From the NCBI GenBank assembly GCA_002715665.1, contig PAZO01000007.1, forward strand, positions 39,270 to 47,490: a stretch of 8,221 nt of DNA, given 5' to 3'. Positions within the stretch are counted from its first letter, which is position 1. Every line of letters begins with the position of its first letter. A program made the position numbers and the translations under genes. This stretch comes from Chloroflexota bacterium. Its GTDB lineage: Bacteria; Chloroflexota; Dehalococcoidia; SAR202; GCA-002694895. Positions 881-8,140 of this stretch are shown one piece after another. The notes under the pieces are model-generated. The model searched no databases. It was given only the letters and a program-made list of their open reading frames with translations, and was not told the origin of the DNA.

Positions 881-1700
881 TTCAAATAAAAGAATTAGTT
901 TTATATTGGTTACTAAAGATAGGCCAGATTTAGTTCGAATTGCCTTAGATAACATAAAAAAAATCCTAACAAAAGAAGATGAACTTATATTAATAAATGG
1001 TGGCGAAAATAACATAAGTAATCCACTTATTAATAAAACCATTAAAGAAAAAGATAAAAGTCCAGGACATGCAATAAATAAAGGGATAATGATTTCTGAA
1101 GGTAGGTATATCAGAACAGTTTCAGACGACGATATAATTCGTAAGCAACAATTTAATGAAGCTATTGATATTTTAGACAAAAATTTATCAATTGATTTTT
1201 TGGTATGTGGAGGTATAAGAGAAAGAGAAAACAAAAGATATCCGTTTTATATACCTAAAAACTCAAACTACGGTGAAAATATGCAAGATATTTCTAAATT
1301 CGGTGCTTGTGGACAAGGATTTATTATTAGAACTAGTTCATTACCTCTAATAGGATTACATCCAACTGGATTAGCATCAGATGTAGAATATGTAATACAG
1401 GCTATAGCAAATGGCGGAAAAGTAAAGTTTTGCAGAATAAATTTATTTCACCACCCAATACACAAAGATAGCGTAACTGTAAAATACAAATCATTGTGGC
1501 AAGATGATTTAAACAAAATATATCAAAAATATAATATTAAAATTAAACAAAAGCCTTTTCACAGAAAATTACTTGGTTTTATATATAAAAACTTATTACC
1601 AACTTCTTATGAAAATAGACAGAAAAAACATCAGAAAATAAACTTTAATAAAGATTTATTAAACGAAAACTCACCATTATGGGATAAAGGATTTAGCTAG
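867..1700 (+). CDS. Glycosyltransferase, family 2-like (GT-A fold)
   Basis: A 277-residue soluble protein, probably transferring a sugar from a nucleotide donor onto the growing lipid-linked glycan at the cytoplasmic face. The N-terminus (ISFILVTKDRP, residues 10-20) is the first strand of a GT-A nucleotide-binding fold. SPGHAINKGI (65-74) followed by a strand and VSDDD (85-89) gives the DXD-type metal and donor site. FGACGQGFIIR (145-155) matches the acceptor-side loop, SDVEY (171-175) offers the acidic catalytic-base position, and HHP (195-197) is a late His pair seen in many GT2 enzymes. The C-terminal part (about 205-277) is basic and may lie on the membrane; no transmembrane segment is visible. 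The ATG at 867 sits inside the end of the epimerase gene (14-nt overlap) with only a weak purine-rich ribosome site, suggesting translational coupling. Donor and acceptor are unknown; a CMP-nonulosonate donor is possible but unproven, since known sialyltransferases belong to other families. Confidence 0.85.
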   Translation: MSKINSNKRISFILVTKDRPDLVRIALDNIKKILTKEDELILINGGENNISNPLINKTIKEKDKSPGHAINKGIMISEGRYIRTVSDDDIIRKQQFNEAIDILDKNLSIDFLVCGGIRERENKRYPFYIPKNSNYGENMQDISKFGACGQGFIIRTSSLPLIGLHPTGLASDVEYVIQAIANGGKVKFCRINLFHHPIHKDSVTVKYKSLWQDDLNKIYQKYNIKIKQKPFHRKLLGFIYKNLLPTSYENRQKKHQKINFNKDLLNENSPLWDKGFS

Positions 1701-2356
1701 TCAATTAATTCGTTTATTTTAGCAAGCACATCTTCATAACTATCAAAATAAAAACAATCTAAATTATTATTCACATAATAATCGTAAAGTTTACTTGTAG
1801 CAAAAACATAATCTGATTTCAACGAAGAATTGAGATCAGTTAAACTATCACCTAAATATATGATTTTAGAATAATTATCTTTATGATATTCAGTAAAACT
1901 ATTTTTAAACTCAGAACTAATAGGATTTCCAAACGGATCAATATATTTAATTTCAATTCCATCATTAACAAATTGTGAAATTCCCGAATATATAGGAACA
2001 GAATTACAATCTATTCCGATAGATTTGAGAGATGATTTAATATAAAAATCCACACCACTACTAACAATTTTATAATCAATCTTTTTGTTTAATATAAAAT
2101 CATAAAATTGTTTAAATCCCTTACGAAATTTTACATTATTGCAAACAAACTCATTTAGTTGTTTTTCAGTAAAATTTAAAAACTGAAAACTGTAAATATT
2201 ACTTTCTTCTACAGAAATTTTCCCTGATCTATAATTTTGATATATGGTATCCCAATTGGCTGGACCAAATTTGTCATGTATTTGTTCACTAACATTACCT
2301 ATGGTAATAGTATTATCAAAATCTGATTGTATTAATATAGGTTTTTTATTTTTCAT
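1697..2356 (-). CDS. HAD-superfamily phosphatase, MtnX/phosphoserine-phosphatase-like
   Basis: A 219-residue HAD hydrolase of the subclass IB type, expected to remove phosphate from a small metabolite in the cytoplasm. Motif I is SDFDNTIT (residues 11-18; nucleophile Asp12, acid/base Asp14). Motif II is IVSSG (97-101), motif III probably Lys151, and motif IV LGDSLTD (168-174). The segment between motifs I and II (about 20-85) is a helical cap containing FRKGFKQFYDF, as in B. subtilis MtnX (2-hydroxy-3-keto-5-methylthiopentenyl-1-phosphate phosphatase). The Cys-rich stretch I recall before motif III in MtnX is absent here, and no other methionine-salvage gene is nearby, so a methionine-salvage role is unlikely. 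It is last in the operon, overlaps the transketolase gene by 11 nt and has no clear Shine-Dalgarno, so it is probably coupled to transketolase translation. Inference: it dephosphorylates a precursor or product of the transketolase/NeuB pathway. Confidence 0.85.
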   Translation of the reverse strand: MKNKKPILIQSDFDNTITIGNVSEQIHDKFGPANWDTIYQNYRSGKISVEESNIYSFQFLNFTEKQLNEFVCNNVKFRKGFKQFYDFILNKKIDYKIVSSGVDFYIKSSLKSIGIDCNSVPIYSGISQFVNDGIEIKYIDPFGNPISSEFKNSFTEYHKDNYSKIIYLGDSLTDLNSSLKSDYVFATSKLYDYYVNNNLDCFYFDSYEDVLAKINELID

Positions 2357-4238
2357 TATTTATTTTTGATAATACTTTCTTAACCAAATCTTTTGCTGTC
2401 AAATAATGATACTTTAAAGCATCATTATTTGATCCATTAACCGGAATGTCAGTAATACCTATATTAGTTATATTCTTGTCATTTATCTGAGTATTCATAT
2501 AACTTCCCAAACCTGTGAAGATCATATGATCTTCAACTGTAAAAATTTTATCTATACCTTTTGTAACATTATAAAACCAATTTTTATCGATATAATTTAA
2601 CCACGGCAAATTTATAACCTTAGCACTTATATTCTGTTTTTCTAATAATTTTGAAGCTCTGATGCATTCATCTAGCATATAAGGATTGTAAGAAAAAATA
2701 GCCAAATCGTAGCCTTTTTCAACAATATATCCTTGTCCATAACTTAATTCGTTATCAAAAGTCATAAATGATAATTCTTTGAAAGGAATACTTGTAATTC
2801 TAATAAATGTACTTCTTTTTGATATATCAAGTGCATATTTGATTATAAATTTAAGATCATTTACTGACGCAGGATGAAAAACATCCATTCCGGGTATATT
2901 TCCCATCAATCCTATATCTCTCACACTTTGATGGGAATGTCCTGGGCCTGATGGTAATAAGCCACATAATCCTGAAACATAAACTATTTTAGATTTTTCA
3001 GTAGCATTATTATAAATTTGTTCGTTAGCTCTTGTGGTTAAAAAAGAAGCAAATGAATGAACAATAGGGATATATTCTTCAAGTGCTAAAGTTCCTGCCT
3101 GAGAAACCATGTCTTGCTCAGATATACCGCATTCTATATATTTTGTTGGAAATTTTCTTTTAAATTCAGTTAATCCGTGATCTTTCATAAGATCTCCGTC
3201 CATAACAATCATTTTGGAATTATCAGCATTTTCTAACAATAATTTTGAATAATTCTCTAATAAGTTAACATTGCTTGAATTCGAACTCTCATTAATCTTA
3301 GTATAATTTTCAAAAACAATTCCTCTTTCTCCAAAATTTTTTAATTTTGAGTTTAATAATTTTTTCAATTCTAGAAGAGCTTTACAATAATCCTCGTAAC
3401 TTAATGCTCCACTATGATAAGGATATTCATAATCTGGTTCTTTTATTTTTTCATCTGCATGCATAAATGAAACTCCATAACCTTTTACAGTATTAGCAAT
3501 AATAACTTTTGGTTTGTCATCTATAGATTTCAGATTTTCAAAAGTAGAATATATTTCTGAAAGATTGTGGCCATCAATTTCTTCTACATGACAACCAAAT
3601 GATTCAAATTTCAAACGTAAATCTCCATTGTCAGAAGTCAAATTTACCCAATTATCTGATTGGATTTTATTATTATCCACAATAATATACATTTCTGACA
3701 TTGATTCATTACTGGCTGACCGCAAAGATTCCCAAATTTGACCTTCTTGAAGCTCTCCGTCACCTAATAAAACTAGAATATTTCTATTAATTCCCTTCAT
3801 TCTCGCAGATTTTACAAACCCTTTAGCTTTTGATATCCCCATTCCCAAAGATCCAGTATTTGTTATTATTCCAGGAGTATTTACATCTGGGTGACCAGGT
3901 AATCCATCAAGCATTCTTAATTGATGAATTTTTTCAAAATCTAAAAGATCAAAAATTGTCATTATTGAATATATAGCAGGAGCGTCATGACCTTTAGATG
4001 AAAAAAATAAATTTTGATTTTGTTGGTTTGTTATTTGAAACTCTGAGAAAATGTAACTTAATAACTCCATGCTACTAAATGATGTGCCTATGTGGCCTGA
4101 CCCTGCTTTATTTATCATGTACAAAGTATTAATTCTTGATATTAATGAAATCAGTTCAGTTTTGTTAATCTTATCTATTTCTAAAGAAGTGATTCGAGTA
4201 ATTTCTTCTTTAGAAATATAACTTAATTTATTATTCAT
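2346..4238 (-). CDS. Transketolase-like thiamine-diphosphate enzyme, full length, in nonulosonate operon
   Basis: A 630-residue protein carrying all three transketolase domains, slightly shorter than the usual 660 or so. The N-terminal ThDP-binding domain has AGSGHIGTS (45-53), SKGHDAP (81-87), LPGHPD (113-118), the cofactor motif GDG...NN (159-161 and 189-190), and YHSGA (274-278). A low-complexity linker rich in Ser/Asn lies near 315-325. The pyrimidine-binding domain has GISEQD (371-376) with the cofactor-activating Glu374, and GPGHSHQ (431-437). The C-terminal domain runs from about 495 to 630. Chemistry is expected to be ThDP-dependent two-carbon ketol transfer. By-eye alignment places Ser at the positions of E. 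coli His461 and Asp469, and I see no counterpart of Arg358 or Arg520, so sugar-phosphate binding may differ from housekeeping transketolase. GAGGAA at 4249-4244 precedes the start, which overlaps the previous stop by 1 nt. Fold is certain; substrates are unknown. Confidence 0.93.
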   Translation of the reverse strand: MNNKLSYISKEEITRITSLEIDKINKTELISLISRINTLYMINKAGSGHIGTSFSSMELLSYIFSEFQITNQQNQNLFFSSKGHDAPAIYSIMTIFDLLDFEKIHQLRMLDGLPGHPDVNTPGIITNTGSLGMGISKAKGFVKSARMKGINRNILVLLGDGELQEGQIWESLRSASNESMSEMYIIVDNNKIQSDNWVNLTSDNGDLRLKFESFGCHVEEIDGHNLSEIYSTFENLKSIDDKPKVIIANTVKGYGVSFMHADEKIKEPDYEYPYHSGALSYEDYCKALLELKKLLNSKLKNFGERGIVFENYTKINESSNSSNVNLLENYSKLLLENADNSKMIVMDGDLMKDHGLTEFKRKFPTKYIECGISEQDMVSQAGTLALEEYIPIVHSFASFLTTRANEQIYNNATEKSKIVYVSGLCGLLPSGPGHSHQSVRDIGLMGNIPGMDVFHPASVNDLKFIIKYALDISKRSTFIRITSIPFKELSFMTFDNELSYGQGYIVEKGYDLAIFSYNPYMLDECIRASKLLEKQNISAKVINLPWLNYIDKNWFYNVTKGIDKIFTVEDHMIFTGLGSYMNTQINDKNITNIGITDIPVNGSNNDALKYHYLTAKDLVKKVLSKINNEK

Positions 4239-5014
4239 TATAATTCCTCGGATTTTTCATATGGTTTTATTTCTATATTTGGTAACAATGCTAGTTTATT
4301 TTGAATTAATGTCTCTGCAACAACCCAATCTGTCGGGGTATTAACATCAATGCCTTCATAACCATTTGTAAAAAATGGAGCGATTTTACTACCTGAAATA
4401 GTACCTGTATCATAAACAGAACTTTTTTTTACAATCTCTAAACTTGCATTTTGTACATATATTTCAGGTAAGGAAGAATATTGCATACTATGATATGGTT
4501 GCCCATATTCATCAGATATAATGTTATTCATTAAAGGTTTTATATACTCACCTTCATAATTCCACATTTTGTATGGATGTTGCCCACATAGTTCAACTGC
4601 GCGGATTGAATCAATAGATTTTTCTTTTGTTATAAATTCTTTCCATGCTCTTTTCAATGTTAATTCATTACGAAATGGACTAGTTGGTCTCAAAATACAA
4701 ACATATGAATAATTTTTTTTTAACTCATCAAGTTTTTTCATTGTAAAATCAAGCCATTCAAAATCCGGTGAATTATCTTTAGCATATTCTTTTGGCCTTA
4801 AAAAAGGAATTTCCGCGCCATAATATTTAGAAATATTTGCTATTTCAGAGGAATCTGTCGAAACCATTACAGAATCAAATACTTCTGAATTTATGGCAGA
4901 TGAAATTGTATAAGCAATTAGAGGATGATTTTCCAAATATTTTATATTTTTGTTAATTATTCTCTTCGATCCTGACCTGGCAGGAATCAAAGCTATCACG
5001 CTGTTATTCACCAT
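4238..5014 (-). CDS. CMP-nonulosonate cytidylyltransferase (NeuA/PtmB-like)
   Basis: A 258-residue nucleotidyltransferase expected to join CTP to a 3-deoxy-ulosonic acid, giving the CMP-sugar donor and pyrophosphate in the cytoplasm. IPARSGSKR (10-18) is the CTP-binding loop of the acylneuraminate/KDO cytidylyltransferase family, followed by NKNI, VSTDSSEIA (51-59), LRPTSPFR (108-115), YVQNASLEI (186-194) and GIDVNTPTDW (221-230), whose Asp223 is the likely Mg2+ ligand. CMP-sialate synthetases usually read QPTSPLR at the 108-115 site; here the Gln is Arg. QNASLEI also differs from the more usual QNG-type motif, which fits a PtmB/legionaminate-like or unassigned branch rather than classical CMP-Neu5Ac synthetase. 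Length is normal for this branch, with no fused C-terminal phosphatase, which instead is the separate HAD gene upstream. It overlaps the SDR gene by 7 nt and the transketolase gene by 1 nt. Reaction class is confident; the acid is not identified. Confidence 0.9.
   Translation of the reverse strand: MVNNSVIALIPARSGSKRIINKNIKYLENHPLIAYTISSAINSEVFDSVMVSTDSSEIANISKYYGAEIPFLRPKEYAKDNSPDFEWLDFTMKKLDELKKNYSYVCILRPTSPFRNELTLKRAWKEFITKEKSIDSIRAVELCGQHPYKMWNYEGEYIKPLMNNIISDEYGQPYHSMQYSSLPEIYVQNASLEIVKKSSVYDTGTISGSKIAPFFTNGYEGIDVNTPTDWVVAETLIQNKLALLPNIEIKPYEKSEEL
4244..4249 (-). promoter_or_regulatory. Shine-Dalgarno site for transketolase gene
   Basis: Read on the - strand this is GAGGAA, with GAGG seven bases before the ATG at 4238-4236. 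It lies inside the last codons of the cytidylyltransferase gene, whose TAA overlaps the ATG as TAATG, the arrangement expected for termination-reinitiation coupling. It fixes the start of the transketolase gene. Confidence 0.7.
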
Positions 5015-5799
5015 GCGCTAAATCCTCCATCAATGACAATATCTGTTCCTGTTACATAACTCGAACTGTCAGATAACAAAAAAATCAAAGCACCTCGAAA
5101 ATCTTTAACATCAGCCATTCGACCCATAGGAACTTTATCAATATATTTTGATACAAATTCTTTATCTTGATTATTATAAACACCCCCTAAAGTCATTGAA
5201 TTTACTCTTACATTATTTGATGCCCAATAAGTTGATAGGTATTTTGTCAGATTTGCTAATCCTGCTTTAGACGCTCCGTATACAAAAGGCTTAAAAAAGC
5301 TTTGGTCACTATCTGAAAAATGAGAATACAATCTTTGGTCTGGAGACAAGTTCCCATAAAGAGAATTTATATTAACAATTGACCCTGCATTATTTTGAGC
5401 CATTTCATTTCCAATGATCTGAGAGCAAAAAAAAGCTCCCTTAAGGTTAACATCCATCACTCGGTTCCAATCTTCTTCAGAATAATTTTCAAAACTAACA
5501 TTAGAGCCTAAATTAGAGTTTGGAGGAGAGTCAATTCCTGCGTTATTAATCAAACCAAATGGAATTCCCCATTCTTTTTTAACAATTTCAAGGACTTCTT
5601 TGATTTCTTCTTTTTTGGTTATGTCTAAATTAAAATACTTCAAATTTTCCGAAACTTTAATTTTCTCAGAATCATTAATATCTAAAACAACAATCTTTGC
5701 TTTGGCATCTAATAAGGTTTTAGTGAAATCAGTCCCTAAATTACCTGACCCTCCTGTAATGAAAATGATTTTATCTTTTAATGAAAAAAAATTTAGCAT
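5008..5799 (-). CDS. Short-chain dehydrogenase/reductase, PtmA-like
   Basis: A classical SDR of 263 residues using NAD(P)(H) to oxidise or reduce a sugar hydroxyl or ketone. TGGSGNLG (15-22) is the nucleotide loop, Asp40 at the end of strand 2 suggests NAD(H) preference, then NLDIT (57-61), NNAG (85-88), Asn118, catalytic Ser146, and YGASK (174-178) with catalytic Tyr and Lys; the C-terminus GTDIVIDGGFSAW is typical of the fold. Ser146 and Tyr174 are 28 residues apart, about twice the usual spacing, with an insert running YSHFSDSDQSFFKPF (158-172). A similar insert occurs, from memory, in Campylobacter PtmA of the legionaminate/flagellin-modification pathway. I chose the ATG at 5799; an in-frame TTG at 5811 would add four residues (MRNI), but family proteins usually begin close to the first strand and the ATG is preceded by GAGAAA. 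It begins 19 nt after the phosphatase gene. Substrate unknown. Confidence 0.9.
   Translation of the reverse strand: MLNFFSLKDKIIFITGGSGNLGTDFTKTLLDAKAKIVVLDINDSEKIKVSENLKYFNLDITKKEEIKEVLEIVKKEWGIPFGLINNAGIDSPPNSNLGSNVSFENYSEEDWNRVMDVNLKGAFFCSQIIGNEMAQNNAGSIVNINSLYGNLSPDQRLYSHFSDSDQSFFKPFVYGASKAGLANLTKYLSTYWASNNVRVNSMTLGGVYNNQDKEFVSKYIDKVPMGRMADVKDFRGALIFLLSDSSSYVTGTDIVIDGGFSAW
5023..5028 (-). promoter_or_regulatory. Strong Shine-Dalgarno site for cytidylyltransferase gene
   Basis: Read on the - strand this is GGAGGA. GGAGG ends nine bases before the ATG at 5014-5012, and lies in the Gly-Gly codons at the end of the SDR gene. It supports the 7-nt overlapping start and shows that this organism uses anti-Shine-Dalgarno pairing. 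Confidence 0.7.
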
Positions 5800-5818
5800 A
5801 ATGTTTCTCAATTACAAT

Positions 5819-6397
5819 TTATAATATAGGGGGAATTTTAATTTTTTCAAAATAATCAATCACTTCCCTAACAACTCCGTTACCACCAGAATTTTTAGTA
5901 ACAAACACATTGGTATTTTGTTCTTTAAATTTATCTATAACATCATTACTTGTATCAGGTACAATCACAGGTAATCCAACGTGTAATAAACATCCTAGAT
6001 CATTAATATCGTTGCCCACAAAAGCAATTTGATCAATTTCAAAATTTCTAGTTTTAATATTGGTCTTTAAATCTTGAAATTTATCACCTGAAATATGATG
6101 ATCAATTTTTATTTTTTTACATCTAGCACTAACTGTTTGATTTGTTTCGCTAGAAAAAACAATATAAGGGACTTTCTCTAATTCAAAATTTTGTCTTCTA
6201 TTAGCTTTTGATATTCCCATACTGTCATACTTAGAATTTTTGATGATTTCTTTACCGTCCTCAGTTGTGTAAACACTATTGTCGGTAAAAACTCCATCAA
6301 AATCAAAAACTACAATTCTGATATTTTTTGCAATCTCATTCATTTCTTCAGAACCAAAGATTTTAAAATTTTTTTCATTTATAAAATTGCTATTCAT
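5819..6397 (-). CDS. KdsC-like HAD phosphatase, candidate nonulosonate-9-phosphate phosphatase
   Basis: A 192-residue C0-type (capless) HAD phosphatase of the KDO-8-phosphate phosphatase family, which normally works as a tetramer. VFDFDGVFTD (30-39) is motif I with Asp32 and Asp34, FSSET (81-85) motif II, SGDK (103-106) motif III with Lys106, and VGNDINDLG (127-135) motif IV. GGNGVVREVID (171-181) is the conserved C-terminal tail that closes over a neighbouring subunit's active site. The length and the 31 residues before Asp32 match E. coli KdsC, supporting the first ATG although no Shine-Dalgarno precedes it; the start lies 2 nt after the NeuB-like gene's TAG. Related enzymes remove phosphate from KDO-8-P and, in Bacteroides, KDN-9-P. 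Being adjacent to a NeuB-like synthase, it probably dephosphorylates that enzyme's product, implying a phosphorylated aldose acceptor (inference). Confidence 0.9.
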   Translation of the reverse strand: MNSNFINEKNFKIFGSEEMNEIAKNIRIVVFDFDGVFTDNSVYTTEDGKEIIKNSKYDSMGISKANRRQNFELEKVPYIVFSSETNQTVSARCKKIKIDHHISGDKFQDLKTNIKTRNFEIDQIAFVGNDINDLGCLLHVGLPVIVPDTSNDVIDKFKEQNTNVFVTKNSGGNGVVREVIDYFEKIKIPPIL

Positions 6398-6399
6398 AT

Positions 6400-7449
6400 C
6401 TAATTGATTTGGTTTTTATTTAAATCTTCATCTTTAGAAATAGCAATATTTATTTTTTTACCAATAAAATTATCTAATTCATGGGGAGGAGTTCCGTTAC
6501 CTGGAATTTTAATAGCAATATCTTCTTTTTTTAAAACTGTTCCCTCTCGTAAGTCTTTTGATGCAACTAATTTTTTTCGTAGTTTAAACATTGCAGGTTT
6601 TTCATTTTCTAATAGTTTTTTTTCTCCTGTTCCCATAGCAAGTTTAGAACGATACAAATCCCTAGTTAACTTCTTTAGCCCTATTGGTTCTAAAGAAAAA
6701 GGCTGATCAGTTCCTTTCATAGATCTATTTAATGTGAAATGTTTTTCGATAATTCTTGCCCCTAGAACATAACCTACTAATGCTAATGCAATTCCACTTT
6801 GATGATCTGAAAGGCCAATTATATTATTCTCAAATTCTTCCAAATAGGTATTAATAACAGAAAGGTTCATATCAGACGGTTGAGCAGGGTAAACTGAGCT
6901 ACATTGTAATATTGATAATTGATTATTATATTTACTAATTTTATCGTAAGCTCTTTTAACGTCATCCAAGCTTGCTCCTCCTGTACTAACAATCATTGGT
7001 CTTCCAGTAGAGGCAATATATTCTAAAAAAGGAGTATTAGTTATATCAGCAGAAGCAGTTTTATATGCGGGTAAATTAAATTCTTCTAAAAAATCTACAC
7101 TTTGAAAATCAAATGGAGTTGCGAAAAACATGATTTCATGTTCACGAGCAAAGTCAATTAAGTGTTTATATTCTTCGTTACCAAATTCCAAATATTCTCT
7201 ATGCTCACCATAAGTTTCTGCAAAACTGTTTGAATTTATATAGGGCATATCATACATTTCTTGAGTAAATAATTCTTGATTATTCCTTTTTTGGAATTTT
7301 ACTGCATTAGCACCTGATTCTTTAGCAGATAAAATCATTTTTTCTGCAATATCAATTTTACCCATATGATTGGCTCCAATTTCTGCTACAACAAAGCATT
7401 CAGAGTCTTGAGTGATTTCCACATCTCCAATATTAAATTTACGTGACAT
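6400..7449 (-). CDS. NeuB-like nonulosonic acid (phosphate) synthase
   Basis: A 349-residue enzyme, the usual NeuB length, expected to condense phosphoenolpyruvate with an aldose to give a 3-deoxy-2-ulosonic acid. The TIM-barrel domain (1-285) has EIGANHMG (23-30), VKFQKR (50-55), TPFD (111-114), YKTASAD (129-135), LQCSSVYP (181-188), GLSDHQSG (212-219), EKHFTL (235-240) and GTDQPFSLEP (246-255). His216, His237, Glu23 and Asp248 match the metal and catalytic residues of Neisseria NeuB. A C-terminal SAF/antifreeze-like domain covers about 293-345. In it the usual RPGNG reads IPGNG, so the Arg that contacts the N-acetyl group of ManNAc (Arg314 in Neisseria) is Ile315. PPHELDNFIGKK resembles the eukaryotic 9-phosphate synthase NANS more than free-sugar NeuB. 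AAGGA lies 5 nt before the ATG. Class is confident; whether the product is sialate, KDN, legionaminate or something else is open. Confidence 0.92.
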   Translation of the reverse strand: MSRKFNIGDVEITQDSECFVVAEIGANHMGKIDIAEKMILSAKESGANAVKFQKRNNQELFTQEMYDMPYINSNSFAETYGEHREYLEFGNEEYKHLIDFAREHEIMFFATPFDFQSVDFLEEFNLPAYKTASADITNTPFLEYIASTGRPMIVSTGGASLDDVKRAYDKISKYNNQLSILQCSSVYPAQPSDMNLSVINTYLEEFENNIIGLSDHQSGIALALVGYVLGARIIEKHFTLNRSMKGTDQPFSLEPIGLKKLTRDLYRSKLAMGTGEKKLLENEKPAMFKLRKKLVASKDLREGTVLKKEDIAIKIPGNGTPPHELDNFIGKKINIAISKDEDLNKNQIN

Positions 7450-7525: not shown

Positions 7526-8140
7526 TTAAAAATATTTTTTTACCCACTTCCTTGAATCAGATTGCCAATTCCCAATTAAAGTAACTAAAATTGAGAAAAT
7601 AATTATTTTGACATCCAACATTATTGTTTGATTATTAATATATAACAAATCATATCTTAATTTATTTTTAGGCGTAGTATCGTAAGAACCTAGTAACTGG
7701 GCTAATCCGGTTAAACCTTGGGGTGCATTAAGTCTAAGATAATACGGGATATTCATCTTTTCAAATTCTTCATATAATTCTGGTCTTTCAGGCCTTGGAC
7801 CAACTAAACTGATATCTCCTTTTAATATATTTATAATTTGAGGTATTTCATCAATTGCATATTTTCTTATAAACTTCCCAGTTTTTGTTAACCTAGGATC
7901 ACTGTTTTTAGCAGCCCAAACTGCACCAGTAGTTTGTTCAGCTTCTTTAATCATTGATCTAAATTTAATTAATTTGAATATCTTCTTATTTTCTCCTAAT
8001 CTATTTTGTGTATAAAAAAATGGCGGCCCATCTTCAAACAGCAAAAATAAGAGGACAAATATAACAACAATAAATAATATTGGCATTAACAATGTAAATC
8101 CAATTACAATAAAACTTAAATCTATAGTTCGTTTAATCAT
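7526..8140 (-). CDS. Small monotopic phosphoglycosyl transferase (PglC/WcaJ-type initiating sugar transferase)
   Basis: A 204-residue membrane protein that transfers a sugar-1-phosphate from a nucleotide sugar to undecaprenyl phosphate at the inner membrane's cytoplasmic face, starting the repeat unit of a surface glycan. KRTID (3-7) precedes a hydrophobic segment (about 8-36) with Pro20, the expected re-entrant helix. FFYTQNRLG (41-49), FKLIKFRSM (55-63), the catalytic Asp-Glu in AIDEIPQ (95-101) and SLVGPRP (111-117) are family signatures; QGLTGLAQ (141-148) and the hydrophobic stretch near 175-190 are also typical. The protein has only the catalytic core, like PglC, without the extra N-terminal membrane domain of WbaP/WcaJ. 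This is not a mis-called start: an in-frame TAA lies two codons before the ATG. It heads the visible - strand run and is followed by a 76-base gap before the NeuB-like gene. The sugar transferred cannot be read. Confidence 0.93.
   Translation of the reverse strand: MIKRTIDLSFIVIGFTLLMPILFIVVIFVLLFLLFEDGPPFFYTQNRLGENKKIFKLIKFRSMIKEAEQTTGAVWAAKNSDPRLTKTGKFIRKYAIDEIPQIINILKGDISLVGPRPERPELYEEFEKMNIPYYLRLNAPQGLTGLAQLLGSYDTTPKNKLRYDLLYINNQTIMLDVKIIIFSILVTLIGNWQSDSRKWVKKYF

What the first reader, a model, noticed from the sequence alone, without database searches (positions are those of the whole stretch)
1697..7449. Candidate undescribed nonulosonate pathway: NeuB, KdsC-type HAD, SDR, cytidylyltransferase, transketolase and second HAD in one tight operon
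Seen: six genes with gaps of 2 and 19 nt or overlaps of 7, 1 and 11 nt, which strongly suggests a single pathway. Known: NeuB plus NeuA-type enzymes make CMP-nonulosonates, and KdsC-like phosphatases act in KDO and KDN synthesis. No characterised sialate, legionaminate, pseudaminate or KDN pathway that I know requires a transketolase and an MtnX-like phosphatase, and the window has no hexosamine 2-epimerase, aminotransferase or acetyltransferase. Inference: the transketolase and SDR build or remodel the aldose acceptor (changed chain length or stereochemistry) or modify the acid, giving an atypical 3-deoxy-ulosonic acid.
Basis: partly seen in the sequence, partly recalled or inferred. Interest (0 to 1): 0.72.

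Follow-up and report, generated by a model that had tools for sequence, protein, structure and literature searches.

The report
Transketolase-containing sialic-acid-like sugar pathway
A gene cluster in a marine bacterium, also found in other bacteria and in viruses of bacteria, pairs sialic-acid-type genes with a re-tooled transketolase and probably makes an acidic surface sugar whose structure and synthesis are not yet described.

Summary
The six-gene operon is real and its geometry is as described. Its core recurs: a distinct transketolase (TKT) subfamily lies with NeuB in 13 of 16 bacterial loci and within 61 nt of a CMP-sugar synthetase in 14 of 16. None of 10 other TKT loci has either within 8 kb. 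Eight phage contigs carry NeuB, SDR, CMP-synthetase and a short TKT; a ninth lacks NeuB at its edge. In six of seven searched, the gene before NeuB is the large terminase. Of four phosphate-gripping residues of ordinary TKTs, the subfamily has lost three in 49 of 49 sequences and the fourth in 48, while the ThDP/ketol residues stay. So the TKT probably acts on the unphosphorylated ulosonate, after NeuB and the KdsC-like phosphatase. My preferred mechanism: SDR oxidises C8 of a KDN-type acid and TKT excises C8–C9, leaving a C7 aldehyde; a semialdehyde-dehydrogenase-like gene in 7 of 16 loci fits this. Hydroxyacetyl branching is the main rival. The MtnX-like phosphatase is in only 3 of 16 loci. 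My literature searches (open PMC papers only) showed no such pathway. Substrates, product and reaction order are inferred.

The parts
6400..7449 (-). NeuB-type 3-deoxy-ulosonate synthase (NeuB + SAF domains)
   Evidence: in 13 of 16 bacterial TKT loci and 8 of 9 phage contigs
5819..6397 (-). KdsC/KDN-9-phosphatase-like HAD phosphatase
   Evidence: NF058599 81 bits, KdsC 77 bits, both under cut-off; in 8 of 16 bacterial loci, 0 of 9 phage contigs
5008..5811 (-). short-chain dehydrogenase/reductase (adh_short_C2; PtmA-like)
   Evidence: in 12 of 16 bacterial loci and 9 of 9 phage contigs
4238..5014 (-). CMP-ulosonate synthetase (PseF-like, CTP_transf_3)
   Evidence: in 14 of 16 bacterial loci and 9 of 9 phage contigs
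2346..4238 (-). transketolase of a distinct subfamily with the phosphate pocket replaced (L327, D353, L424, S483/I484; also P432)
1697..2356 (-). MtnX-like HAD-IB phosphatase, lineage-specific addition
   Evidence: only in window, L001 and L024 of 16 bacterial loci
7526..8140 (-). polyprenyl-phosphate sugar-1-phosphate transferase (PF02397); upstream on the same strand, marks a surface-glycan locus
   Evidence: 181 bits; same position in L001 and L024
867..1700 (+). GT2-type glycosyltransferase, convergent with the operon; same surface-glycan locus
   Evidence: 30.7 bits; same place in L001 and L024
2..880 (+). NAD-dependent sugar epimerase/dehydratase (nearest GDP-fucose synthase, under cut-off), 5' end cut by the window

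Best explanation
The operon makes a CMP-activated, skeleton-modified 3-deoxy-ulosonic acid for a surface glycan. Steps: (1) NeuB condenses PEP with a hexose 6-phosphate, most simply mannose-6-phosphate, giving a KDN-type 9-phosphate. (2) The KdsC-like HAD removes the phosphate. (3) The SDR oxidises a hydroxyl, most likely C8, giving HOCH2-CO-CH(OH)-R, the group a transketolase needs in a donor. (4) The re-tooled TKT, which lacks the phosphate pocket, takes the C8-C9 ketol unit off the unphosphorylated acid (free or CMP-linked) and leaves an aldehyde at C7. (5) In some relatives an aldehyde dehydrogenase oxidises it, giving a heptulosaric-type acid; elsewhere it is reduced or kept. (6) The CMP-synthetase activates the acid and a glycosyltransferase places it. 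Shown by sequence: gene content, co-occurrence, loss of the phosphate pocket, presence of the aldehyde dehydrogenase gene in relatives. Inferred: every substrate, the C8 position, the direction of the TKT step and the order.
For: Co-occurrence: CMP-synthetase in 14 of 16 and NeuB in 13 of 16 bacterial subfamily loci, neither in 10 control TKT loci. Phage cassettes with the same four genes; in L029 the run from terminase to methyltransferase holds no further sugar enzyme that Pfam or PHROGs names. Pocket: human R318, S345, H416 (recalled as ligands of substrate phosphate; positions mapped) are R 14/14, S 12/14, H 11/14 in controls, but never R (49/49), always D (49/49) and L/Y/M/F (49/49) in the subfamily; at R474's place controls have R 11/14 and the subfamily 1 of 49 (phage L076; L028 has an R nearby). 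The control D at window P432 (14/14) is P in 47/49. H49, H84, H116, D160, N190, H275, H436 are 49/49 and E374 48/49. A KdsC/KDN-9-phosphatase-like HAD follows NeuB. SDRs of the same Pfam family are tied to C8 epimers: EpaB with EpaA, and AciE (PMC12053666 section 6; PMC5595891 passages). An aldehyde dehydrogenase lies in 7 of 16 bacterial loci; the two copies scanned score best with 2-oxo-acid semialdehyde dehydrogenases.
Against: No enzyme has been assayed and no product is known. Type C loci (L069, L070, L087) have TKT and aldehyde dehydrogenase but no SDR beside them; the nearest SDRs in those genomes sit in other NeuB clusters without TKT, so the SDR-TKT link is not absolute. The window, L001, L024, L065, L086, L067, L068, L025 and the phage contigs show no aldehyde dehydrogenase match, so the fate of the aldehyde there is open. 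The KdsC-like phosphatase is not seen beside 8 of 16 bacterial modules (three of these on short contigs) nor in any of 9 phage contigs, so a phosphorylated acceptor is inferred for half the loci only. The acceptor for the ketol unit is unknown. Streptomyces L025 has no CMP-synthetase match nearby, and an aminotransferase gene just before NeuB, which points to an amino sugar there. C8 epimerisation by EpaB or AciE alone is not shown biochemically in what I read. A transketolase has been proposed to add a hydroxyacetyl branch to a keto sugar in miharamycin/amipurimycin (PMC12247030 passage), the opposite direction.
Confidence: 0.4

Rival explanations
1. Branching: the SDR oxidises a ring or side-chain hydroxyl to a ketone and the TKT adds a hydroxyacetyl unit to it, giving a branched C11 ulosonic acid.
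For: Transketolases were proposed for this (oxidoreductase, then split TKT) in miharamycin and amipurimycin biosynthesis, not tested in vitro (PMC12247030 passages). Also fits the loss of the phosphate pocket if the donor is, for example, hydroxypyruvate.
Against: Gives no aldehyde for the aldehyde dehydrogenase found in 7 of 16 loci. Loci without a neighbouring SDR exist (L069, L070, L087).
Confidence: 0.25
2. Acceptor building: TKT and SDR prepare an unusual aldose (chain length or stereochemistry) that NeuB then condenses with PEP.
Against: Where the phosphatase follows NeuB (8 of 16 loci) the acceptor should be phosphorylated, yet the TKT has lost the phosphate ligands. The same SDR family sits with NeuB and a CMP-synthetase in clusters without TKT.
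Confidence: 0.19
3. The TKT and SDR belong to a different sugar of the same glycan and are merely co-transcribed with a plain KDN or sialate pathway.
For: Surface-glycan loci are mosaics; the SDR also occurs without TKT; L001 carries further split TKT and SDR genes next door.
Against: TKT stays within 61 nt of the CMP-synthetase in 14 of 16 bacterial loci that otherwise differ, and with NeuB, SDR and CMP-synthetase in short phage cassettes.
Confidence: 0.1

Closest known systems
KDN / CMP-KDN pathway (mannose-6-P, KDN-9-P synthase, KDN-9-P phosphatase, CMP-KDN synthetase)
   Same: NeuB-type synthase, KDN-9-phosphatase-like HAD (NF058599 81 bits, under cut-off), CMP-synthetase; no hexosamine genes among the 9 window proteins searched
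   Different: KDN synthesis needs no SDR, TKT or aldehyde dehydrogenase (recalled knowledge)
8-epi-nonulosonate tailoring (AciE in K73; EpaA/EpaB in Acinetobacter prophages)
   Same: an SDR of PF13561 that tailors a nonulosonate; EpaA/EpaB are also phage-carried (PMC12053666, PMC5595891)
   Different: no transketolase in the passages seen; product is an epimer with the same skeleton; direct sequence relation to the window SDR not tested
Legionaminate/pseudaminate flagellin glycosylation clusters with PtmA
   Same: NeuB homologue + SDR (NF050062 PtmA, 117 bits, under the 350 cut-off) + PseF-like CMP-synthetase; PtmA lies in a legionaminate cluster of Plesiomonas (PMC4481668 passages)
   Different: no aminotransferase, acetyltransferase or NDP-sugar hydrolase named in the window; TKT present
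Split transketolase of miharamycin/amipurimycin (proposed hydroxyacetyl branching)
   Same: TKT paired with an oxidoreductase for an unusual sugar (PMC12247030 passage)
   Different: split genes in nucleoside antibiotics; sequence relation not tested
Canonical and split pentose-phosphate transketolases
   Same: same three domains in the window protein, ThDP and ketol residues
   Different: phosphate-binding R/S/H/R replaced (the last kept in 1 of 49), D424 equivalent replaced by P in 47 of 49, separate clade at 0.93 support in a midpoint-rooted tree
[quoted passage not shown]
   Same: the class of product predicted if the C7 aldehyde is oxidised; its plant biosynthesis is listed as unknown (PMC12168206 passages)
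   Different: C4-C6 of KDN would give L-arabino, not D-lyxo (own stereochemical reasoning); no plant link tested

Membership tests
canonical transketolase (pentose phosphate) | ThDP and ketol-handling residues | tested here: met
   H49, H84, H116, D160, N190, H275, H436 49 of 49; E374 48 of 49
canonical transketolase (pentose phosphate) | substrate-phosphate ligands R318, S345, H416, R474 (human numbering, ligand role recalled) | tested here: not met
   subfamily R 0/49, S 0/49, H 0/49, R474 place 1/49 (L076); controls R 14/14, S 12/14, H 11/14, R 11/14
canonical transketolase (pentose phosphate) | only or housekeeping TKT of the genome | tested here: not met
   another PF00456 match in 10 of 12 carrier genomes; G380 and G622 show only this one
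nonulosonate pathway (NeuB type) | NeuB synthase plus CMP-synthetase in one locus | tested here: met
N-acetylneuraminate synthase NnaB (TIGR03569) / PseI (TIGR03586) | score over curated cut-off | tested here: not met
   293.8 against 399.65 and 258.3 against 340.25 bits
Neu5Ac, Leg and Pse pathways | hexosamine 2-epimerase, aminotransferase or acetyltransferase in the locus | tested here: not met
   none among the 9 window proteins searched; genome-wide presence not tested; Streptomyces relative L025 does have an aminotransferase before NeuB
KDN pathway | KDN-9-P phosphatase (NF058599) over cut-off | tested here: not met
   81.2 against cut-off 180 bits; works-like claim remains
KDN pathway | mannose-6-phosphate as acceptor | not testable with these tools
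   needs an assay
C8-tailoring SDR (AciE/EpaB) | adh_short_C2 (PF13561) SDR in a nonulosonate locus | tested here: met
   137 bits; necessary, not sufficient
C8-tailoring SDR (AciE/EpaB) | oxidation at C8 | not testable with these tools
   needs an assay
GT42-like sialyltransferase (phage L029 224-aa protein) | fold shared by sialyltransferases and MptE-type HPPK | tested here: met
GT42-like sialyltransferase (phage L029 224-aa protein) | sequence match to a solved sialyltransferase | tested here: not met
   0 hits up to E 10 with the A3 profile
GT42-like sialyltransferase (phage L029 224-aa protein) | transfer of a CMP-ulosonate | not testable with these tools
   needs an assay

The most novel reading that the evidence does not exclude
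A transketolase subfamily that works on sialic-acid-type sugars instead of sugar phosphates: with an SDR it cuts two carbons off a KDN-type acid, opening a general route to 3-deoxy-hept-2-ulosonic and heptulosaric acids. Both bacteria and tailed phages carry this route, and the phages use it, with their own sialyltransferase-like enzyme, to decorate their heads.
Probability: 0.25. Interest if true: 0.85.

Novelty: new variant of a known kind. Interest (0 to 1): 0.62.

Why it matters
Transketolases are textbook enzymes of sugar phosphates; a conserved subfamily rebuilt for an acidic surface sugar would be a new use of the fold and a handle to predict unknown acidic sugars from genomes. If the chain-cutting model holds it would give a genetic route to short 3-deoxy-ulosonic acids of the Dha class, whose synthesis is listed as unknown in plants (PMC12168206 passages). 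Phages that carry the same genes beside their head genes suggest virion or host-surface decoration with such acids, a testable idea.

Tried and rejected
Housekeeping TKT: rejected for most carriers (10 of 12). DXS-like pyruvate chemistry: rejected as the main reading, since the TKT-type histidines including H275 are kept in 49 of 49. MtnX-like HAD as core: rejected (3 of 16). Chance gene neighbours: rejected. An argument I dropped: 'transketolases build ketoses, NeuB needs an aldehyde' is weak, since the reaction also yields an aldose; on checking I raised that rival from 0.17 to 0.19 and lowered the main model from 0.42 to 0.40 for this and for the Streptomyces aminotransferase.

Literature: nine searches. 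Transketolase with nonulosonic/NeuB/cytidylyltransferase, flagellin glycosylation (23), ulosonic acid (24), N-acetylneuraminate synthase or O-antigen (86, 25 of 72 listed); phage nonulosonate or capsid glycosylation (37, 87); heptulosaric (36, 20 of 53 listed), PtmA (64), 8-epi acids (80). I saw no paper describing this module; the library is open PMC papers only and I saw listings with abstract starts. Seven papers were opened: PMC11766843 (passages; transketolase only in a pathway-map legend), PMC4481668 (passages), PMC12053666 (abstract, section 6, passages), PMC12168206, PMC5595891, PMC12247030 and PMC13390465 (passages; the last has a split TKT in an Actinoplanes polysaccharide cluster and none of the sialate terms I searched in it).

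Deposited phages: TKT hits in 44 of 50,697 records, all under 60% identity (30 listed); phage TKT in 31; phage NeuB in 3; window SDR in 77. I opened one, AG-345-L05, with SDR and NeuB but no TKT match in the 18.5 kb seen. Plasmids: 735 records hit, 40 listed, best 38.6%; only that one, L025, was opened. Foldseek alone gave no E below 0.001 for the phage 224-aa model; VIA-align on its top 1000 did rank sialyltransferases. Phage TKTs are not one clade, and that tree is midpoint rooted with long branches. L065's TKT lacks the catalytic Glu (GIGAQ): sequence error or inactive copy.

Limits of the control: one search lists 17 TKT_N matches of carriers besides the module TKTs. I used 9 of these plus one from the relative G004. 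Two that I left out lie in the module's own locus and do have NeuB within 8 kb (L001 pair 5.8 kb, L023 pair 7.0 kb); the other six were not tested for neighbours. Four control stretches meet a contig end within 8 kb (L095, L096, L101, L102). Two have a weak SDR match (44-50 bits) on the other strand (L099, L100). Spread outside Chloroflexota rests on names (Thalassospira, Gomphosphaeria, Gammaproteobacteria, Patescibacteria) and one Streptomyces plasmid; gene context there was seen only for the plasmid. The 30 rows of A1 were picked by me: the window plus 29 of the 120 listed hits (7,997 in all).
Full report
Observation. Family searches support each name at the superfamily level, but no equivalog model of a known pathway enzyme that was shown reaches its cut-off (for the SDR 25 of 206 matches are shown): NeuB scores 293.8 against 399.65 for NnaB, the synthetase 143 against 205.7 for PseF, the first HAD 81 against 180 for KDN-9-phosphatase, the TKT 314 against 488. 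A PF02397 sugar transferase lies 76 nt upstream on the same strand, so this is a surface-glycan locus. The TKT is 95% identical to that of an uncultured marine Chloroflexi MAG, in which the whole operon is kept. A second genome of the same family (G003; 2 of 5 genomes searched carry it) keeps it at 74% TKT identity.

Is the cluster more than chance? I collected 16 bacterial loci that hold a TKT of this subfamily: window, L001, L024, L025, L059, L064-L070, L085-L088, that is, every subfamily locus in genomes that searches gave, plus the top plasmid hit. Within 8 kb on the same strand the CMP-synthetase is present in 14 of 16, always within 61 nt (missing in L059, on a 3.2 kb contig, and in Streptomyces L025). 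NeuB is in 13 of 16 (missing in L059, L068 and L088, all on contigs of about 9 kb or less). The SDR is in 12 of 16, the KdsC-HAD in 8, an aldehyde dehydrogenase in 7 and the MtnX-HAD in 3. As a control I took ten other TKT loci, nine from carriers and one from a relative (L094-L103): none has a NeuB, HAD or CMP-synthetase match within 8 kb on either strand, and two have a weak SDR match (44-50 bits) on the other strand. Four of the ten meet a contig end. Two further TKT pairs that I left out lie in the module's own locus and do have NeuB within 8 kb (L001 and L023 pairs). The 16 loci are not independent: window, L001 and L024 form one lineage, and L069, L070 and L087 come from one order. The trait is sporadic. 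In a draw of 400 Chloroflexota genomes 13 matched at E 1e-100; 9 are subfamily members by score (648-1000 bits) and 4 are split pairs. Further draws, which overlap the first and one another, gave 3 of 158, 2 of 29, 2 of 393, 3 of 393 and 4 of 201, four new carriers in all.

Gene-order types: A, NeuB-KdsC-SDR-CMP-TKT (window, L001, L024, L065, L086). B, the same with an aldehyde dehydrogenase between SDR and CMP-synthetase (L064, L066, L085; L088 in part, with a glycosyltransferase gene between the aldehyde dehydrogenase and the CMP-synthetase). C, NeuB-ALDH-CMP-TKT with no SDR or KdsC beside it (L069, L070, L087). L067 has NeuB-SDR-Nudix-CMP-TKT, L068 SDR-CMP-TKT, and L025 NeuB-SDR-TKT with an aminotransferase gene just before NeuB. 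Two aldehyde dehydrogenases were scanned (L064, L069): they score best with alpha-ketoglutaric semialdehyde / 2,5-dioxovalerate dehydrogenases (429-434 bits, under the cut-offs of 770 and 750), that is, with enzymes for aldehydes of 2-oxo acids. The others are called by similarity to L064 (792-820 bits). In the type C genomes the nearest SDR relatives (40-45% identity) lie in other NeuB-SDR-CMP clusters without TKT. So the SDR is a wider partner of nonulosonate clusters and the TKT is the special element.

The transketolase. In a MAFFT alignment of 49 subfamily members (30 from A1, 11 Chloroflexota, 1 Streptomyces, 7 phage) and 14 other TKTs, the ThDP and ketol residues are kept: H49, H84, H116, D160, N190, H275 and H436 in 49 of 49, and E374 in 48 of 49. 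The residues that in ordinary transketolases hold the substrate phosphate (human R318, S345, H416, R474; roles recalled, positions mapped) are R 14/14, S 12/14, H 11/14 and R 11/14 in the controls. In the subfamily the first is I, V, L, A, S, M, P or G; the second is D in 49 of 49; the third is L, Y, M or F; at the fourth only phage L076 keeps an R (1 of 49; L028 has one nearby). The aspartate of controls at window P432 (14/14) becomes P in 47 of 49. Two controls (L001 and L023 pairs) depart from the canonical pattern too and look like further accessory TKTs. The subfamily including phages forms a clade with 0.93 support in a midpoint-rooted FastTree tree. Ten of 12 carrier genomes have another TKT_N match. 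So this is a specialised enzyme whose substrates probably have no terminal phosphate.

Mechanism. The operon's first phosphatase is nearest to the KDN-9-P/KdsC type, so NeuB probably makes a 9-phosphate and the acid is then freed. That places a TKT without phosphate pocket after these steps and argues against acceptor building. The argument holds for the 8 of 16 loci that have this phosphatase. [quoted passage not shown] the authors say biochemical studies are needed), and EpaA with EpaB converts Pse to its 8-epimer in Acinetobacter prophages (PMC12053666, abstract and section 6; roles of the two proteins not separated in what I read). If the SDR here oxidises C8 of a KDN-type acid, the end becomes HOCH2-CO-CH(OH)-R, a transketolase donor. 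Cutting between C7 and C8 leaves an aldehyde on a 2-oxo acid, which is what the recurrent aldehyde dehydrogenase should use. The product would be a heptulosonic or heptulosaric acid. [quoted passage not shown] The main rival is addition of a hydroxyacetyl branch to a keto sugar, proposed for split TKTs in miharamycin and amipurimycin but not tested in vitro (PMC12247030, passages). I put 0.40 on the chain-cutting model and about 0.65 on the broader claim that the TKT acts on the acid after NeuB (chain cutting and branching together).

Novelty. Each enzyme class is known, and nonulosonate pathways with tailoring SDRs are known. The combination with a re-tooled TKT was not found in the searches listed under Tried and rejected, which cover open PMC papers only. 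I rate it a new variant of a known kind. The chemistry could raise that.

Noticed in passing
L026, L027, L028, L029/L030, L031, L037, L072, L074 (IMG/VR contigs): Phage contigs carry a NeuB-SDR-CMP-synthetase-short TKT cassette (NeuB not seen in L037) beside head genes: large terminase before it in six, portal after it in seven, a FkbM methyltransferase in most, a sialyltransferase-fold family in several.
   Followed up: partly
L026 13370-14332, L027 16214-17047, L028 14591-15418, L072 12960-13805: Longer relatives of the phage sialyltransferase-fold protein lie about 5-6 kb past the TKT, beyond the portal gene; L028 has both kinds.
   Followed up: partly
L001 12203-13940 and L023 3159-4870: Further split transketolase pairs in the same glycan loci; they keep the R and D of ordinary TKTs but have F and G at two phosphate positions, so they may be another specialised group. 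In L001 an SDR follows (14148-14945).
   Followed up: partly
L089 6404-9368, L090 3523-7400, L091 11670-14386, L092 4574-7703: NeuB-SDR-CMP-synthetase clusters without TKT in the type C genomes; in three of the four (L089, L090, L092) the synthetase ORF is 408-423 aa, longer than the window's 258 aa.
   Followed up: no
L093 8761-12219 (MH319754.1, Marine virus AG-345-L05): A large tailed-phage record with an SDR and a NeuB-like gene in a run of unannotated genes, without a TKT match in the 18.5 kb seen.
   Followed up: no
L069 447-3121: Methyltransferase, second CTP-transferase and D-2-hydroxyacid dehydrogenase genes upstream of the module; purpose unknown.
   Followed up: no
L065 9461-11410: This TKT reads GIGAQ where others read GIAEQ, so the catalytic Glu is missing: sequence error or inactive copy.
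   Followed up: no
L067 11947-12477: A Nudix hydrolase gene sits between SDR and CMP-synthetase.
   Followed up: no
L025 8111-10108: An aminotransferase-domain ORF lies just before NeuB in the Streptomyces plasmid locus, which may mean an amino ulosonate there.
   Followed up: no
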